Below, one piece after another: positions 53,461 to 59,364 of a DNA stretch of 64,000 bases (within the stretch, counting starts at the first letter, position 1; the number at the start of each line of letters is the position of its first letter). The stretch lies in NCBI RefSeq assembly GCF_000282475.1, contig NZ_AKJF01000005.1, forward strand, positions 1-64,000, read 5' to 3'. The position numbers were made by a program, and so were the translations under genes. Origin of the DNA: Pseudomonas sp. GM78 (lineage in GTDB: Bacteria > Pseudomonadota > Gammaproteobacteria > Pseudomonadales > Pseudomonadaceae). Below the pieces are notes generated by a model. The model was given only the letters and a program-made list of their open reading frames with translations. It had not been told where the DNA came from and did no database searches.

Positions 53461-53799
53461 TCAGCGACGGGTCAGCGGCTGTTGAGCAAACTTCACCCCG
53501 GCCAGGCCATGGGCGATCAACGCACGGATATTGCCGTGATCGCTGCCTTCAGGTGTCGCCAGCACCGAACGGTAATGCTCGCCGAATGCCAGCAGCGCTT
53601 CTTCATCGCTCAGGCCTTCCAACAGGGCCAGGCCCAGGGTCTTGCACGAACCTTCGTTCTGCCCGGCGGCGTTTTCCACGCCGCCATTGTTGAAGGCCTG
53701 GGGCTGGTAATCGTAGCCGGCGGCAATGAACGCCAGGGTATCGGCGAAGGCGTGTTCGCCGCTCTTGAGGCTGGCGCGCAGGGTGTTCAAATCACTCAT
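53461..53799 (-). CDS. HopJ type III effector family protein
   Basis: A 112-residue protein of the HopJ family, named after a P. syringae effector but widespread in non-pathogenic pseudomonads. The conserved QAFNNGGVENAAGQNEGSCKTLGLALL and ATPEGSDHGNIRALI regions are present. No secretion signal can be read and no type III genes are nearby, so an effector role is doubtful; a housekeeping role is possible. Its start overlaps the end of the DUF1244 gene by 8 bases. Confidence 0.85.
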   Translation of the reverse strand: MSDLNTLRASLKSGEHAFADTLAFIAAGYDYQPQAFNNGGVENAAGQNEGSCKTLGLALLEGLSDEEALLAFGEHYRSVLATPEGSDHGNIRALIAHGLAGVKFAQQPLTRR

Positions 53800-54088
53800 T
53801 GGGTTTTCCTTTGGCGAACGCCGCTTGTTGGTCGGCGCTGGCTTCTTGCTGATATTGGGCTTTCCACTCGGCGTACGGCATGCCGTAGACCATTTCGCGG
53901 GCTTCATCGAGGCTGACCTCGATCTGGCGTTCATCGGCCGCTGCCTTGTACCACTTGGACAGGCAATTGCGACAGAAGCCCGAGAGGTTCATAAGGTCGA
54001 TGTTCTGCACATCCTTGCGGCTGTCCAGGTGGGCCACCAGCCGGCGGAAGGCGGCGGCTTCGAGCTCAAGGCGTTCTTGATCGGTCAT
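53792..54088 (-). CDS. DUF1244 domain-containing protein
   Basis: A 98-residue protein of the DUF1244 family. The conserved centre RRLVAHLDSRKDVQNIDLMNLSGFCRNCLSKWY, with two Cys, and AREMVYGMPYAEWKAQYQ are typical. The function is unknown; the Cys pair may bind metal. ATG 54088 (MTDQERLE) was chosen over a frame extension. It is translationally linked to the HopJ-family gene. Confidence 0.88.
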   Translation of the reverse strand: MTDQERLELEAAAFRRLVAHLDSRKDVQNIDLMNLSGFCRNCLSKWYKAAADERQIEVSLDEAREMVYGMPYAEWKAQYQQEASADQQAAFAKGKPNE

Positions 54089-54106: not shown

Positions 54107-54190
54107 AGCTTCAAGCGGCAAGCTTCAAGCTGCAAGATGGATTGCGGTGGCTTGTAGCTTACCGCTTGAAGCTTGAAGCTTGAAGCTTAG
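54107..54190. repeat. AAGCTT-type short repeats
   Basis: Copies of AGCTTCAAGC on one side (54107-54131) face three tandem GCTTGAAGCTTGAAGCTTGAA units on the other (54165-54187). Together they form an inverted array of the HindIII-site repeat type seen in pseudomonads. The last unit contains the folX stop codon. Confidence 0.8.
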
Positions 54191-54558
54191 CGGCTTGCCG
54201 CGAGTGTAATCGACACCGACTCGGCGAATCGCAGGGCGTGGGGCTTGTCGACTTCGACTTCGGCGTACAGCACCGACTCGTTGGCCATGACCAGGTCCAG
54301 CAGCTCCTGGGTCAGGCGTTCGAGCAGGGCGAAGCGGTTGCCTTCCACGTGGGCGATGATCGCCTTGGTGATGGTGCGGTAGTTCAGCGCGTGATCGATA
54401 TCGTTGTCGCGCACCGCTTCCTGGGCGGCATAGAGGATGGTCAGGTTGATCAACACATCCTGCTTGTTGAGTATCTCGTCTTCGTTGATGCCAATGTAGG
54501 TGCGCAGGCACAGGTCCTTGACCCGGATGCGCGCCATGCCTGGTTGAAGTTGTGGCAT
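54187..54558 (-). CDS. folX: Dihydroneopterin triphosphate 2'-epimerase FolX
   Basis: A 123-residue FolB/FolX-fold enzyme. It shows [32 protein letters not shown], the conserved Asn-Tyr-Arg of [11 protein letters not shown], and [18 protein letters not shown]. In the order folX-folE-folM it epimerises dihydroneopterin triphosphate to dihydromonapterin triphosphate for tetrahydromonapterin, the cofactor of phenylalanine hydroxylase in Pseudomonas. FolB activity cannot be excluded by eye. Confidence 0.88.
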
Positions 54559-54560
54559 TG

Positions 54561-55136
54561 CTACTTGCTCCGTCCAATCAATTGCAGGAACTCCTGGCGG
54601 GTGTTGCTCGACTCGCGGAAGGCGCCGAGCATCACCGAGGTGTTCATGGTCGAATTCTGTTTCTCGACGCCGCGCATCATCATGCACATGTGCTGCGCCT
54701 CTATGACCACGGCAACGCCAGCCGCGCCGGTTACCTGTTGCACGGCGTCGGCGATTTGCCGGGTGAGGTTTTCCTGGATCTGCAGGCGACGGGCGAACAT
54801 ATCCACCAGCCGCGCAATCTTCGACAGGCCCAGCACCTTGCCCGTTGGAATATAAGCCACATGCGCCTTGCCGATGAAGGGCAGCAGGTGATGTTCGCAG
54901 AGGGAATAGAGTTCGATGTTGTCGACGATCACCATTTCATCGTTGTCGGACGCGAACAACGCGCCGTTGATGATTTGCTCGACACTCTGCTCGTAACCGT
55001 GACACAGGTACTGCATGGCCTTGGCCGCGCGCAGCGGCGTGTCGCGCAGGCCTTCGCGGTCGGGGTTTTCACCGAGACCGATGAGGATCTCGCGATAGCT
55101 CTGTGACAGGCGGTTCTGGGGTAGGGAAAGCGTCAT
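54561..55136 (-). CDS. folE: GTP cyclohydrolase I
   Basis: A 191-residue enzyme that opens GTP to dihydroneopterin triphosphate. The zinc site is in [20 protein letters not shown], with [10 protein letters not shown] further on providing the third ligand. It lies between folX and folM and serves the monapterin branch, while other copies may feed folate. Confidence 0.96.
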
Positions 55137-55155
55137 GGAAGATCCTCAGGGACAC

Positions 55156-55866
55156 TTATTTGATGTGCCTTCCGCCGTTGACGGTCAGGGTCGTGCCGGT
55201 GACATAAGGGTTATCAAGCAAATAACGCAGGCTCTGGTAGATCACTTCGCTGCCGGGTTCGATGCCCAGCGCGGATTTGGCCAGTACCTTGGCGCGATAG
55301 GCGGCATCGTCGTCGGCATTGAACAGTAGCAGGGCGGGCGCGATTCCGTTGACCTTGATGCCGGGCGCGTATCGGGCGGCGAAGGACAGGGTCAGGCTGT
55401 CGAGCCCGGCTTTGCTGGCACAGTAGCCGATGTGCTTGCTGCTGCCCTTGCGGGTCACGTCATCGCCGATGTGCACGATGTCGGCGGGGCTCGAGAGTTC
55501 GAGCAGGTCGGCGCAATGCAGGTTGATCAGGTAGGGTGCCAGCATGTGCACGCTGAACATGCGGGTGAATGCCGTGGCATCGGTGCCTGGGGTCTCGGCC
55601 AGCCATTCGGAGGCGTTATGGATAATCGCCCGCAGGCTGTCGGTGTGTGTTTTCAGTTCACTGATGAAGGTGAGGATCCCGGCTTCGCTGGAGAAGTCCG
55701 CGAACAGCCCGATGGCCCCCAGGTCGCGCAGGGTTTGCACGCCGGGACGTTCGCTGCGGTAACTGAAAATCACGCGATGGCCGTCTTCGAGCAATCGCTG
55801 CGCGCAATGCAGGCCGACACGCTGGCCGGCACCGGTGATCAGAATGGGGGCTGCAGAAGAGGTCAT
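55156..55866 (-). CDS. folM: Dihydromonapterin reductase FolM
   Basis: A 236-residue short-chain dehydrogenase. The NADPH site is PILITGAGQRVGLHCAQRLL and the catalytic Tyr-x-x-x-Lys is in HIGYCASKAGLDSLTL. FolM reduces dihydromonapterin to tetrahydromonapterin. The C-terminal NPYVTGTTLTVNGGRHIK is typical of the pteridine reductase-like group. It heads folM-folE-folX. Confidence 0.93.
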   Translation of the reverse strand: MTSSAAPILITGAGQRVGLHCAQRLLEDGHRVIFSYRSERPGVQTLRDLGAIGLFADFSSEAGILTFISELKTHTDSLRAIIHNASEWLAETPGTDATAFTRMFSVHMLAPYLINLHCADLLELSSPADIVHIGDDVTRKGSSKHIGYCASKAGLDSLTLSFAARYAPGIKVNGIAPALLLFNADDDAAYRAKVLAKSALGIEPGSEVIYQSLRYLLDNPYVTGTTLTVNGGRHIK

Positions 55867-55919
55867 GAACGGCTCGCGTCGCGGTAAGAGCAAAACTATA
55901 CCAGCGACGAGCCGTGAGC

Positions 55920-56489
55920 CTACAGGTTTTGGGTAGTCGGTTGCGCGGGCAATGGCCGTGTGGGCGCGCTGTTCAGCCAGTTGGCCAACAGACGGGTCGA
56001 CAGCGGAATGAAGAAGTAGACCATCAACGGTGTCAGGCACAGAGTGCTGATCAGCACCCGAGGCAATAGCGTCATCTCGCCCAGCAACGGCCCAAGCATA
56101 AAATTGAACAGCAGTGACACCGGAAAGAACGCCAGCCAGATCGCAACGGCCTGTTTCCAGCGTGGCGGGCGTTGTCCCGCTGCGCCGAACCAGCCTTCGA
56201 TGCCGCTGACCCGATGCTCCGTCGGGTGGGCGAACAAATCGCTGCCACGGGCCAGCCAGGCGGTGCGCGAGGCGGAGTGCTCCCAGGCGTGCAGCGTCGG
56301 CTCGTCGGCGAAGCGGAAAATAATCTGGAATTCGTTATCGCCGGGCGGCGGAGCGAGCACGCCGGAGCCCAGGTAACCGGGGAAGTCGGTGGCCAGTTGT
56401 TCGCCTTCGCGCAGCCAGGCCATCAAGTCCTGATAGCGTCCATCGGCGACGCGACGCGCAACCATCAGCGTGACGGGGGAGGTAGACAT
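55920..56489 (-). CDS. Antibiotic biosynthesis monooxygenase-domain membrane protein
   Basis: A 189-residue protein with two parts. Residues 1-95 form an ABM domain (PVTLMVARRVADGRYQDLMAWLREGEQ...FQIIFRFADEPTLHAWEHS). The C-terminal third has two or three membrane helices (AVAIWLAFFPVSLLFNFMLGPLL, VLISTLCLTPLMVYFFIPLS). Such fusions occur in several proteobacteria; the function is unknown. Two adjacent ATGs (56492 and 56489) follow GGAG; the second has better spacing. Confidence 0.85.
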   Translation of the reverse strand: MSTSPVTLMVARRVADGRYQDLMAWLREGEQLATDFPGYLGSGVLAPPPGDNEFQIIFRFADEPTLHAWEHSASRTAWLARGSDLFAHPTEHRVSGIEGWFGAAGQRPPRWKQAVAIWLAFFPVSLLFNFMLGPLLGEMTLLPRVLISTLCLTPLMVYFFIPLSTRLLANWLNSAPTRPLPAQPTTQNL

Positions 56490-56633
56490 CATGTATCTCC
56501 GTAAACAAATGCGTCGCTCCGGGTAGGAGTTTCGCCAGGTGCAGCGCCGGGGTGGTGGGCTGCATCTTGGAACAAGCAAATAGTATTCCCGATTCTACCT
56601 GCGACGTCGGTGCCCCCGGTAACAATCTATTTC

Positions 56634-56698: not shown

Positions 56699-57658
56699 AT
56701 GCCTGTCTTGACCGACGTTGCCCCGGATGTGTCGCCAGCGCTCTCCCTGGAACGGGTAGAGCTTTTTCCGATACGCGAAGTGGCGCGCCTGACCGGTGTG
56801 AACCCGGTCACGCTTCGCGCGTGGGAGCGACGTTATGGCCTGATCGTGCCCACCCGCACCGAAAGCGGGCATCGCCTGTATTCGTTGACCGACATCGAGC
56901 GGGTCCGCAGCATCCTCAACTGGATCGAGCGCGGTGTAGCGGTCAGCAAGATCGCCAGGATCCTGGCCAAGGCGGCGCCGTTACAGGCACTGGCGCACAT
57001 CATCCCCAGCGATCTGGTGCAGGCGGATTACGCACAGTGGCAGCAACAGCTTGCGGCCGCGGTCAGTGCGTTTGACGACGCCCGACTGGAGCAGGTCTAC
57101 GGACAGATTTTTTCCAGTTACTCCCAACCGGTGGTTTTCCAGGACATCCTGCTTCCGCTGTGGAGGCAATTGCTGCAGCGCCAGGATACGTTTGGCCGGG
57201 CCAGCGAATGGTTGTTCCTCGATGGGTTCCTGCGCTCGCGGGTGGTGCAGCGCTTGCTGCTGATCCGTGACCGACACCCCAGGCGAGTCATCGTCAGCGC
57301 CTTGGCAGGCCAGTGTCGCGAACTCGAGTTACTGATCGCCGCGCTGTTCCTGGCCAATGATCAAATGGGGGTGCGGGTGCTGACCACCGGGCAACCGTTC
57401 GACGAACTGACCCTGGTCTGCGAGCGGATCAAGCCCCGGGCGCTGGTGCTGTTTTCCAATCACGTCCCCACCCCTGACTTGCCCCGACGCCTGAATCGCT
57501 TGGCAATGAGCCTGGATTGCCCCTTGTTGCTGGCCGGTGAGGCTTGTGACCTGGCGCAGGAAAGCCTCGCCGGGTCCTCGATCGGTTGCCTGGGCAACGA
57601 GGGCACGGTGATGCGCCAGCGCCTGAACCAGTTTCTGGCCGGCAGCCTGGATACCTGA
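56699..57658 (+). CDS. MerR-family regulator, LitR/PplR-like, lacking the cobalamin motif
   Basis: A 319-residue regulator. The MerR helix-turn-helix is at about 24-75 (FPIREVARLTGVNPVTLRAW, GHRLYSLTDIERVR). The C-terminal part has the fold pattern of the B12-binding domain of LitR/CarH (VLTTGQPFDELTLVCERIKPRALVLF). At the place where class I LitR has the Glu-x-His cobalamin motif, this protein has AGQCRELELL (203-212), so it probably cannot bind B12. This matches the class II LitR (PplR) type of P. putida, which answers light through a LOV protein. The short LOV gene at 58342 supports that. Confidence 0.85.
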   Translation: MPVLTDVAPDVSPALSLERVELFPIREVARLTGVNPVTLRAWERRYGLIVPTRTESGHRLYSLTDIERVRSILNWIERGVAVSKIARILAKAAPLQALAHIIPSDLVQADYAQWQQQLAAAVSAFDDARLEQVYGQIFSSYSQPVVFQDILLPLWRQLLQRQDTFGRASEWLFLDGFLRSRVVQRLLLIRDRHPRRVIVSALAGQCRELELLIAALFLANDQMGVRVLTTGQPFDELTLVCERIKPRALVLFSNHVPTPDLPRRLNRLAMSLDCPLLLAGEACDLAQESLAGSSIGCLGNEGTVMRQRLNQFLAGSLDT

Positions 57659-57669
57659 TGTTCAGGGGT

Positions 57670-58275
57670 TCAGAGGTGCAGGGTGGGATGGGTCAAACGA
57701 TGCTGTTGCAGGATGAACTGACGCAGGCGCTCGGTTTCGTCCAGGTCGTTCTGGCTCAGATGGTAGGCATAGAAACCCTTTTCGGTTTCCTTTTCGAGGG
57801 TCCCGCGCAGGGCGATTCGTTCATAGCCTGAGGGGCTGAACCACAGGGCGAAGTGCTTGGGTGCCTTGGTCTTATTGCGAATCTCCAGCAAAACCCCTTT
57901 GAACGAAACCTCGTGCACCCACAGGGTGCCGGGTTGGCCCTTGGCGTTTTCCAGCGCCACCGGCTCGTCGAGCACCAACCGCCATGGCCGCACTGATGGC
58001 CCGCCTTCATAGATGCTGGGCACACCCAGGCGCAGGTGCATGGCATGAAACTCGTCTTCCACCAGGTGCAGGGGGAAGGTCATTTGCTGGTTTTCGAAAT
58101 TGGCTTGAAGGGTGACTTGCTCATGCGCGGCCAGGCGCGTGAGCAGGTCACGGATCTGCGACCCACCGTTGACCAGCAGGCTCGACGTCGCATCCCGCAC
58201 ATTCAGCTGCGGGTTGTGTTGCATGGTCTGGATAAAATCCAGCTCATCCTGGGTCAGGAGCGCGTCGCGTTGCAT
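57670..58275 (-). CDS. PilZ-like domain protein (possible c-di-GMP effector)
   Basis: A 201-residue cytoplasmic protein. A YcgR-N-like first half (QMTFPLHLVEDEFHAMHLRLG) precedes a PilZ-like second half. The usual RxxxR and (D/N)xSxxG c-di-GMP motifs appear only as near matches: RPWR at 96-99 and EVSFKG at 122-127. It lies 66 bases after the LOV gene on the same strand and converges on the LitR-like gene, 11 bases away. ATG 58275 was chosen; a TTG at 58329 would add 18 residues. Binding of c-di-GMP is a guess from the motifs. Confidence 0.65.
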   Translation of the reverse strand: MQRDALLTQDELDFIQTMQHNPQLNVRDATSSLLVNGGSQIRDLLTRLAAHEQVTLQANFENQQMTFPLHLVEDEFHAMHLRLGVPSIYEGGPSVRPWRLVLDEPVALENAKGQPGTLWVHEVSFKGVLLEIRNKTKAPKHFALWFSPSGYERIALRGTLEKETEKGFYAYHLSQNDLDETERLRQFILQQHRLTHPTLHL

Positions 58276-58341
58276 GGTGGGCTCGAAAGATTTAGTTACA
58301 GAGGCACTGGTGATTGTAGTTAATGACAATTGATTCGCTGT

Positions 58342-58806
58342 TTAGTTTTGGCCGTTCGTCGCTTTGAGCGCAGCAAGTTCAGCCTGGACTTCTGCCAGTT
58401 GCGCTTCCAGCTGCACCACCCGCTGCTGTGCCTTGACCTGTATGGTCACGTCTTTCTGCACGCCGATAAAATAAACCTGGCCGTCATTCGGATTTTTCAC
58501 CGTTGAAAGCGACAGTTCGTTCCAGAACGGCGTGCCATCCTTGCGATAATTACGCAGGATTTCCCGGCAGGCGCCTTCACTGTTCAGCGCGTCACGAATC
58601 TTCGACAGCGCTTCCTGGTCGCGGTCGCCTGACTGCAGGAAGCGGCAGTCCTGGTAGAGGATTTCTTCACTGGTGTAACCGGTCAGGCGTTCGAAGGCCG
58701 GGTTGACGTAGATCAGGATCTTGTCTTGATCGCCTTCCTTTTCGGCAATCACGATACCGTCGTTGGAGGCATTGATCGCCAGCTGCAGCAGTTTCGCGTT
58801 GATCAT
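58342..58806 (-). CDS. Short LOV blue-light photoreceptor
   Basis: A 154-residue LOV-only protein of the Pseudomonas short-LOV group (PpSB1/PpSB2 of P. putida). The photoactive Cys54 is in QDCRFLQ. The FMN ligands Asn86 (LRNYRKDG), Asn96 (FWNELS) and Gln117 (GVQKDV) are all present. The N-terminal INAKLLQLAINASNDGI cap and a C-terminal coiled-coil helix (residues 121-150) match the dimerising elements of the group. No effector domain is attached, so it must signal to partners. The neighbours are a PilZ-like protein and a LitR-like regulator. Confidence 0.93.
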   Translation of the reverse strand: MINAKLLQLAINASNDGIVIAEKEGDQDKILIYVNPAFERLTGYTSEEILYQDCRFLQSGDRDQEALSKIRDALNSEGACREILRNYRKDGTPFWNELSLSTVKNPNDGQVYFIGVQKDVTIQVKAQQRVVQLEAQLAEVQAELAALKATNGQN

Positions 58807-58908
58807 CGGTGAAACCCTTCCTTGTTGGTTGTCTGTGGGATTCTAAAAGAACAATGCAGACCGTGCTGTTAATATCCCGGTCTTTTATTCAGCTTCAGGA
58901 TCAGATTG

Positions 58909-59364
58909 ATGAAAGTCGCCATCATTTCCGGCTCGGTGTACGGCACGGCTGAAGAAGTTGCCCGCCACGCCGCCAGTATTTTGAAAACCGCCGGTTTCGA
59001 AACCTTCCACAACCCCCGGGCAAGCCTTGCCGATCTTCAGGCCTTCGGTCCCGAGGCCTTGCTGGCGGTCACCTCCACCACCGGCATGGGCGAGCTACCG
59101 GACAACCTGCAACCCCTGTACTCGACGATTCGCGACCTGTTGCCCGCCGCCTGGCGAGGCTTGCCGGGGGCCGTGATCGGCCTGGGCGACGCGAGCTATG
59201 GCGATACCTTTTGCGGCGGTGGCGAGCTGATGCGGGAGCTGTTCGGTGAGCTGGGTGTTCGCGAAGTCCTGCCGATGCTGCGCCTGGATGCCAGTGAAAG
59301 CGTGACCCCGGAAACGGATGCCGAGCCCTGGCTGGCGGAACTGGTCGACGCGCTGCGAGGCTGA
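58909..59364 (+). CDS. Flavodoxin (MioC family)
   Basis: A 151-residue flavodoxin. The FMN phosphate loop is ISGSVYGTAEEVA, with TSTTGMGELPDN and GLGDASYGDTFCGGG for the isoalloxazine and ribityl contacts. MioC-like flavodoxins carry electrons to radical enzymes such as biotin synthase. The gene is divergent from the LOV gene and uses the same cofactor, FMN, though no direct link is shown. ATG 58909 is used rather than TTG 58906. Confidence 0.9.
   Translation: MKVAIISGSVYGTAEEVARHAASILKTAGFETFHNPRASLADLQAFGPEALLAVTSTTGMGELPDNLQPLYSTIRDLLPAAWRGLPGAVIGLGDASYGDTFCGGGELMRELFGELGVREVLPMLRLDASESVTPETDAEPWLAELVDALRG

What the first reader, a model, noticed from the sequence alone, without database searches (positions are those of the whole stretch)
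56699..58806. Compact blue-light module: class II LitR-like regulator, PilZ-like protein and short LOV
Seen: a LOV-only protein with photoactive Cys and all FMN ligands, a PilZ-like gene 66 bases downstream on the same strand, and a convergent MerR/LitR-like gene that lacks the B12 motif. Known: in P. putida, class II LitR (PplR) proteins have been described as responding to light through short LOV proteins. Inferred: the LOV protein relieves repression by the MerR protein, and the PilZ-like protein links light to c-di-GMP output. The PilZ member as part of this module is, to my knowledge, not described.
Basis: partly seen in the sequence, partly recalled or inferred. Interest (0 to 1): 0.78.

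Follow-up and report, generated by a model that had tools for sequence, protein, structure and literature searches.

The report
Known light switch beside odd PilZ
A Pseudomonas genome carries a blue-light sensor next to the repressor it most likely switches off, a pairing already worked out in a related species; the third gene between them is a little-known PilZ-type protein that other Pseudomonas keep without the light sensor, so it is probably a neighbour and not a part of the switch.

Summary
LOV and the MerR gene match the described pair PmSB-LOV / PmlR2 of P. mendocina, where illuminated LOV binds the repressor and takes it off DNA (PMC9758184). That paper also reports the three-gene cluster as conserved in Pseudomonas, so this part is known. 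The middle protein is PilZ-like: Pfam misses the window copy, but 25 of 44 homologues hit PilZ and the predicted fold matches PilZ structures best. Its c-di-GMP motifs are altered. That it is the light module's c-di-GMP output is not supported: in 298 Pseudomonas genomes LOV and LitR are mostly absent together (33 lack both), while the PilZ-like gene stays in 34 of 36 LOV-less genomes, with a mioC-like gene nearby in 91 of 91 loci; five genomes have LOV and LitR adjacent and no PilZ-like gene. New, and noticed after the fact: the PilZ-like protein has a strongly conserved N-terminal peptide, in the register of the CheY-binding tail of FliM, on a flexible linker. A Thiotrichales relative lies among GGDEF, HD-GYP and receiver genes. 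This suggests a receiver-docking PilZ protein, untested.

The parts
56699..57658 (+). class II LitR (PmlR2-type MerR repressor), 319 aa, no B12 domain hit
   Evidence: same gene order as the pmlR2 region in PMC9758184
57670..58275 (-). PilZ-like protein, 201 aa (by position the counterpart of PME15565)
   Evidence: (25 of 44 homologues hit PF07238 at E up to 1)
58228..58260 (-). conserved N-terminal peptide LLTQDELDFIQ (residues 6-16), FliM-tail-like
   Evidence: Mean column identity 0.76 against 0.39 for linker 21-37 and 0.53 for residues 93-175 in 44 representatives; FliM comparison
57751..57999 (-). PilZ beta-barrel (residues 93-175)
57979..57990 (-). RPWR (residues 96-99), altered RxxxR motif
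   Evidence: R96 and R99 44 of 44; a true RxxxR in 6 of 44
57895..57912 (-). EVSFKG (residues 122-127), altered [D/N]xSxxG motif
   Evidence: ExSxxG in 67 of 91, [DN]xSxxG in 9 of 91
58342..58806 (-). short LOV blue-light receptor, 154 aa
58645..58647 (-). codon of photoactive Cys54
   Evidence: Aligned to the DCRFLQ cysteine of solved short LOV proteins
58906..59364 (+). MioC-like flavodoxin, divergent from LOV; constant neighbour of the PilZ-like gene
   Evidence: NCBIfam NF004343 'flavodoxin' 9e-89, over cut-off; the MioC model itself scores below its cut-off; within 1.5 kb of the PilZ-like gene in 91 of 91 loci
54187..56579 (-). ABM-domain protein and folM, folE and a FolB-domain gene (folX by position), on the far side of LitR
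   Evidence: folM, folE and folX lie in the pmlR2 region of P. mendocina

Best explanation
Two things share this locus. (1) LOV plus class II LitR is the known short-LOV switch: in the dark LitR represses light-inducible promoters; in blue light the LOV flavin-cysteine adduct forms, LOV binds LitR and takes it off DNA. Shown in P. mendocina; inferred here from homology and gene order. Its likely targets are elsewhere in this genome: a SnoaL/SDR/DUF1365/cyclopropane-synthase-like run on contig C17 and the LitR1-phrB-RudS cluster on contig C97, both with exact operators. (2) The middle gene is a non-canonical PilZ protein that belongs to the mioC side of the locus. It is probably transcribed behind LOV where LOV is present (66-base gap, no terminator-like site found on that strand; inferred), but it is inherited independently of the light pair and is most likely a soluble adaptor that docks through its conserved N-terminal peptide, with or without c-di-GMP.
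For: PMC9758184: repressor, anti-repressor and cluster conservation. LOV/LitR: 33 both absent, 3 LOV alone absent, 9 LitR alone absent, 253 both present of 298, Fisher 3.5e-32; LOV against PilZ-like: 2, 34, 6, 256, p 0.25; LitR against PilZ-like p 0.088 (not corrected for phylogeny). Five genomes with mioC-LOV-LitR-ABM-folM and no PilZ-like gene. mioC within 1.5 kb of PilZ-like in 91 of 91 loci, LOV in 56 of 91 (the set was enriched on purpose for LOV-less genomes). Operators in own genome before the C17 and C97 genes. PilZ fold. No terminator-like site on the minus strand in 57500-59100.
Against: No operator matching TRTACA-N12-TGTAYA with up to 2 mismatches lies near the module in the window; the 3 window hits are far off and within chance, so local regulation is not shown. 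Nothing here was measured in light. In P. mendocina folM and folE respond to light about 2-3 fold, so part of the neighbourhood is light-regulated. LitR is not always next to the PilZ-like gene: in 8 of 25 divergent LOV-bearing loci no LitR lies within 1.5 kb, though in at least G014, G109, G154 and G075 it is 2-3 kb away on the same contig. Presence and absence may simply track clades; the counts are not independent events.
Confidence: 0.75

Rival explanations
1. One reading: LOV, LitR and the PilZ-like protein form one light module and the PilZ-like protein is its c-di-GMP output.
For: LOV lies upstream on the same strand in all 56 loci of the 91 that have it, median gap 69 bases between match ends, largest 507; a Thiotrichales relative lies among GGDEF and HD-GYP genes; P. 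cichorii LOV1 affects swarming and biofilm (PMC11231323, abstract and passages).
Against: Kept in 34 of 36 LOV-less genomes, absent in 6 LOV-bearing ones; altered c-di-GMP motifs; pmSB-LOV and pmlR2 transcription called constitutive in P. mendocina.
Confidence: 0.13
2. The PilZ-like protein is a flagellar or chemosensory adaptor: its FliM-like tail binds CheY or another receiver, its PilZ barrel sets when. (Compatible with the best explanation.)
For: Tail pattern L-[ST]-x-x-E-[LMI]-x-[FY]-[IL] in 43-44 of 44 at each position, best match to the FliM peptide at the same residue register as FliM MAVQDLLSQDEIDALL in 43 of 44; window copy scores 31 where the best of 1112 other ORFs scores 23; disordered linker 21-37; EIDALL is the CheY-P site of FliM and FliY (PMC9126983, passages); the Thiotrichales relative keeps LSQEELNFIQ and sits near a receiver gene.
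Against: Found after the fact; only 19 of 44 representatives score above that best other ORF, and 9 of 44 score 15 or less; S/T-x-x-E is also a generic helix cap (recalled); Ala-Leu-Leu of FliM is Phe-Ile-Gln here; of 2 genus genomes without FliM, 1 keeps the PilZ-like gene with an intact tail.
Confidence: 0.15
3. LitR here answers to another signal and LOV acts elsewhere.
For: 9 of 298 genomes have LOV without a LitR match at E 1e-75, 3 the reverse; no nearby operator.
Against: Proved pair in P. mendocina; strong co-occurrence.
Confidence: 0.05

Closest known systems
PmlR2 / PmSB-LOV of Pseudomonas mendocina NBRC 14162 (PMC9758184)
   Same: LitR, one middle gene, short LOV, and folM-folE-folX in the same region; 319 against 321 aa LitR; neither has a B12-binding domain of the kind that binds B12
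   Different: An ABM-domain gene lies between LitR and folM here; no consensus operator found in the window near folM; the middle gene is not characterised there. I did not have the P. mendocina sequences to align
PplR1-3 and PpSB1/2-LOV of P. putida KT2440 (as summarised in PMC9758184)
   Same: Same families and the same operator consensus
   Different: P. putida has three PplR and two LOV; this genome shows two LitR and, at E 1e-40, one LOV
YcgR / FlgZ / MrkH PilZ proteins
   Same: PilZ barrel preceded by another domain; among the best solved fold matches
   Different: Short FliM-like tail, RxxR and ExSxxG motifs; N-domain not matched on its own
FliM / FliY N-terminal CheY-binding peptide
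   Same: L-L-[ST]-Q-D-E-[IL]-D at the same distance from the start codon, then a flexible linker
   Different: Phe-Ile-Gln instead of Ala-Leu-Leu; attached to a PilZ protein

Membership tests
class II LitR | MerR HTH at N-terminus | tested here: met
   PF13411 2.1e-17
class II LitR | no functional B12-binding domain | tested here: met
   No B12 Pfam hit; CarH ligand positions replaced
class II LitR | B12-binding_2-like helical region kept | tested here: inconclusive
   No PF02607 hit in the window protein; hit at 1.8e-7 in the paralogue on C97; the CarH alignment does span the region
class II LitR | partner of a short LOV protein | tested here: inconclusive
   Adjacency and co-occurrence shown; binding not testable
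short LOV | LOV domain with photoactive Cys, no effector domain, C-terminal helix | tested here: met
   154 aa, Cys54, aligned over its length with 7yx0 and 7r5n
PilZ superfamily | PilZ profile match | tested here: inconclusive
   Window copy 0 hits; 25 of 44 homologues at E up to 1, best 3.1e-8; of 8 scanned singly, 4 over the gathering score
PilZ superfamily | PilZ barrel fold | tested here: met
c-di-GMP-binding PilZ | RxxxR and [D/N]xSxxG (motifs recalled) | tested here: not met
   RPWR and EVSFKG in the window copy; RxxxR in 6 of 44, [DN]xSxxG in 5 of 44 representatives
FliM/FliY-type CheY-P-binding tail | EIDALL motif | tested here: not met
   ELDFIQ in the window copy; similar but not the motif

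The most novel reading that the evidence does not exclude
A genus-wide Pseudomonas PilZ family carries a FliM-like N-terminal docking tail, so that it competes for or recruits CheY-type receivers; where a LOV gene stands in front of it, its expression is tied to the blue-light receptor, joining light, second messenger and motor control at one locus.
Probability: 0.1. Interest if true: 0.65.

Novelty: new member of a known kind. Interest (0 to 1): 0.35.

Why it matters
The light switch is ordinary for Pseudomonas, and its chemistry is known. What remains open is the middle protein: present in 290 of 298 genus genomes sampled, in no study that my searches showed (26, 27, 48, 66, 88), and missed by Pfam in this copy. 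If its tail does dock on a receiver, it would be a PilZ effector with a motor-type address label, and PilZ inventories of Pseudomonas based on Pfam would be one short.

Tried and rejected
Three-gene light module as such: rejected on presence and absence and on loci with either part missing.

Local LitR operator in the window: none near the module; an alignment of the stretch upstream of litR showed no clear conserved operator by eye. The perfect site on C200 lies inside an open frame that looks like an OprD-type porin (name recalled, no family scan) and is taken as chance.

PDB by sequence profile: no hit for alignment A1 at E up to 1. N-domain alone (38 of the 44 representatives; L047, L055, L070, L075, L082 and L085 left out): best Foldseek E-value 0.24, so its fold is left open.

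FliM link: tested by genomes without FliM, but only 2 of 298 lack it, too few to decide.

Relatives beyond the genus: 5 of 194 order genomes with the single protein, 4 of them of the same genus, own included; 3 of 321 class genomes with the profile, own included; one genome-contig scan with the Thiotrichales protein gave 1 locus, identical to the query.

Rows dropped: 44 of 91 homologues kept as representatives below 85% identity; LOV matches under 100 residues (L062) and LitR matches at or below 45% identity not counted; G144, the sixth LOV-bearing genome without a PilZ-like match, was not looked at. The LOV threshold 1e-40 and the LitR threshold 1e-75 were my choice, so a more distant copy counts as absent. 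The LOV-less and LitR-less sets were typed into from the printed rows and, for rows not listed, from the gaps in the handle numbers. The ORF background is mechanical (ATG or GTG start, 120 aa or more, all six frames of the loci held), not a gene set.

Full report
What is there. The window holds, left to right, a FolB-domain gene (folX by position), folE, folM and an ABM-domain gene (all minus), the LitR-like gene 56699-57658 (plus), the PilZ-like gene 57670-58275 (minus), the LOV gene 58342-58806 (minus) and a MioC-like flavodoxin gene 58906-59364 (plus).

The known part. Maruyama et al. 2022 (PMC9758184; I saw the abstract, the first two of eight parts of the text, the Discussion and term hits) describe in P. 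mendocina the class II LitR PmlR2 and the short LOV protein PmSB-LOV. PmlR2 represses; illuminated PmSB-LOV binds its N-terminal domain and removes it from DNA. Their pmlR2 region also holds folM, folE and folX, and they state that pmlR2, PME15565 and pmSB-LOV are conserved as a cluster in Pseudomonas. The window shows the same genes, with an ABM-domain gene between LitR and folM. PME15565 is named once in the main text and the word PilZ not at all.

LOV details. The nearest solved proteins are 7yx0 (7.6e-74) and 7r5n (3.7e-68), then 7a6p, 5luv and a group of 'Sensory box protein' entries. Cys54 is in place; the position of PpSB1-LOV Arg66 is Leu67. A PpSB1-LOV R66I variant relaxes in about 34-35 min (PMC6047819, passages) against 109 min quoted for PpSB1-LOV, so a faster dark recovery than PpSB1-LOV is a mild prediction.

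LitR details. It aligns with Thermus LitR/CarH over residues 22-253 (5e-18 to 9e-18), but the WH pair, the EH pair and the GERHE histidine are replaced, which fits a protein that does not use B12. This genome has one paralogue, on contig C97.

The likely regulon lies elsewhere. With the published operator, the own genome has four perfect sites: C17:122175, C97:22785, C97:22835 and C200:23632. The C17 site ends 37 bases before a SnoaL_2-SDR-oxidoreductase-DUF1365-CMAS run. The two C97 sites precede a 2-thiouracil-desulfurase/DUF1722 (RudS-type) gene, the second LitR and a photolyase. These are the kinds of gene reported as light-induced. The C200 site lies inside an open frame. At up to one mismatch the pattern gave 22 forward matches in the genome against 16 for the reversed control, so only the perfect, promoter-placed sites carry weight. 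No site was found near the module in the window. In other genomes a site stands between the ABM gene and folM: exact in L065 and L066, one mismatch in L070-L073, L075, L076 and L094-L098.

Is it part of the light module? In 298 genus genomes, LOV is absent from 36 (E 1e-40), LitR from 42 (E 1e-75) and the PilZ-like gene from 8 (E 0.001). LOV and LitR go together (33 both absent, 3 and 9 single absences, 253 both present). LOV and PilZ-like do not (2, 34, 6, 256; p 0.25), nor clearly LitR and PilZ-like (p 0.088). These are species counts without a tree. In 91 loci, the mioC-like gene lies within 1.5 kb of the PilZ-like gene in 91; LOV is between them in 56: 30 of the 30 nearest, 25 of 30 divergent ones, 1 of 30 in a set made of 29 LOV-less genomes and one control, 0 of 1 from another genus. 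LitR is within 1.5 kb in 51 of 91 by the same count (30, 17, 4 and 0); in 8 of the 25 divergent LOV loci it is not, though in at least four of them it is 2-3 kb off. In L094-L098 (five genomes without a PilZ-like match) LOV and LitR lie tail to tail with no room for a gene between. So the light pair comes and goes beside a stable mioC/PilZ-like neighbourhood, and the PilZ-like gene can go while the light pair stays.

The new observation. Residues 6-16 of the PilZ-like protein are far better conserved (mean column identity 0.76) than the linker 21-37 (0.39) or residues 93-175 (0.53) in 44 representatives; the pattern L-[ST]-x-x-E-[LMI]-x-[FY]-[IL] holds in 43-44 of 44 at each of its six fixed positions. 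The model shows a short helix, a disordered linker and then the folded part. FliM of the same genome begins MAVQDLLSQDEIDALL; the PilZ-like protein begins MQRDALLTQDELDFIQ, in the same register from the first residue. Scored against the FliM peptide (50 for identity), the window copy gets 31; of 1112 other mechanical ORFs from the loci held the best gets 23. The family is uneven: median 22.5, range 7-37, 19 of 44 representatives above 23. EIDALL is the CheY-P binding motif of FliM and FliY (PMC9126983, passages). Against this: the comparison was made after noticing it, S/T-x-x-E also caps ordinary helices (recalled), and the ALL of FliM is FIQ here. Only 2 of 298 genomes lack FliM: one lacks the PilZ-like gene too, one keeps it with its tail.

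A distant relative. Among 321 class genomes, one outside the family matched the profile (2.1e-15); a record of a Thiotrichales MAG carries the identical protein. It hits PilZ at 7e-11, has the canonical NxSxxG and the tail LSQEELNFIQ, and lies between a GAF-HD gene of HD-GYP type and a PAS-GGDEF gene followed by a receiver-domain gene. One locus is an anecdote, but it is the direct sign that this kind of protein can work in c-di-GMP and receiver signalling.

Literature on the link. Searches for PilZ with LOV, blue light and Pseudomonas (12 papers), for locus tags (5 papers), for short LOV with LitR or PilZ (20 of 125 listed), for FliM with CheY-binding motif and PilZ (12 of 25 listed) and for PilZ with flavodoxin and folE (none) showed no paper, by listing and abstract starts, that treats this protein; the library lacks most subscription papers. 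FlgZ work counts five PilZ genes in P. fluorescens F113 (PMC3913639, passages). P. cichorii LOV1 alters swarming and biofilm (PMC11231323, abstract and passages), which leaves room for a motility link without pointing to this gene.

Verdict. A new instance of a described light switch, with an overlooked PilZ-type neighbour.

Noticed in passing
own genome C17:122175 and C97:22785, 22835 (L099, L100): Exact LitR operators before a SnoaL/SDR/DUF1365/CMAS run and before a RudS-LitR1-photolyase cluster: the likely light regulon of this strain.
   Followed up: partly
L065, L066, L070-L073, L075, L076, L094-L098: LitR-type operators between the ABM gene and folM in other Pseudomonas, including genomes without LOV or LitR at this locus; none found in the window.
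   Followed up: partly
L141 788-4880: Thiotrichales MAG: PilZ relative with the same kind of tail between HD-GYP-type and PAS-GGDEF genes and a receiver-domain gene.
   Followed up: partly
L062 1018-1086: Only the last 23 residues of LOV are matched between mioC and the PilZ-like gene, in a 73% complete genome; loss or assembly fault.
   Followed up: no
window 53461-53934: HopJ-family domain protein (PF08888, 8.5e-37) beside the fol genes.
   Followed up: no
L078, L083, L086; L038, L044, L046, L090: Some PilZ-like proteins have DxSxxG instead of ExSxxG (9 of 91, e.g. the first three loci); others have Ala and Ser in place of the Ser and Gly of that motif (the last four).
   Followed up: no
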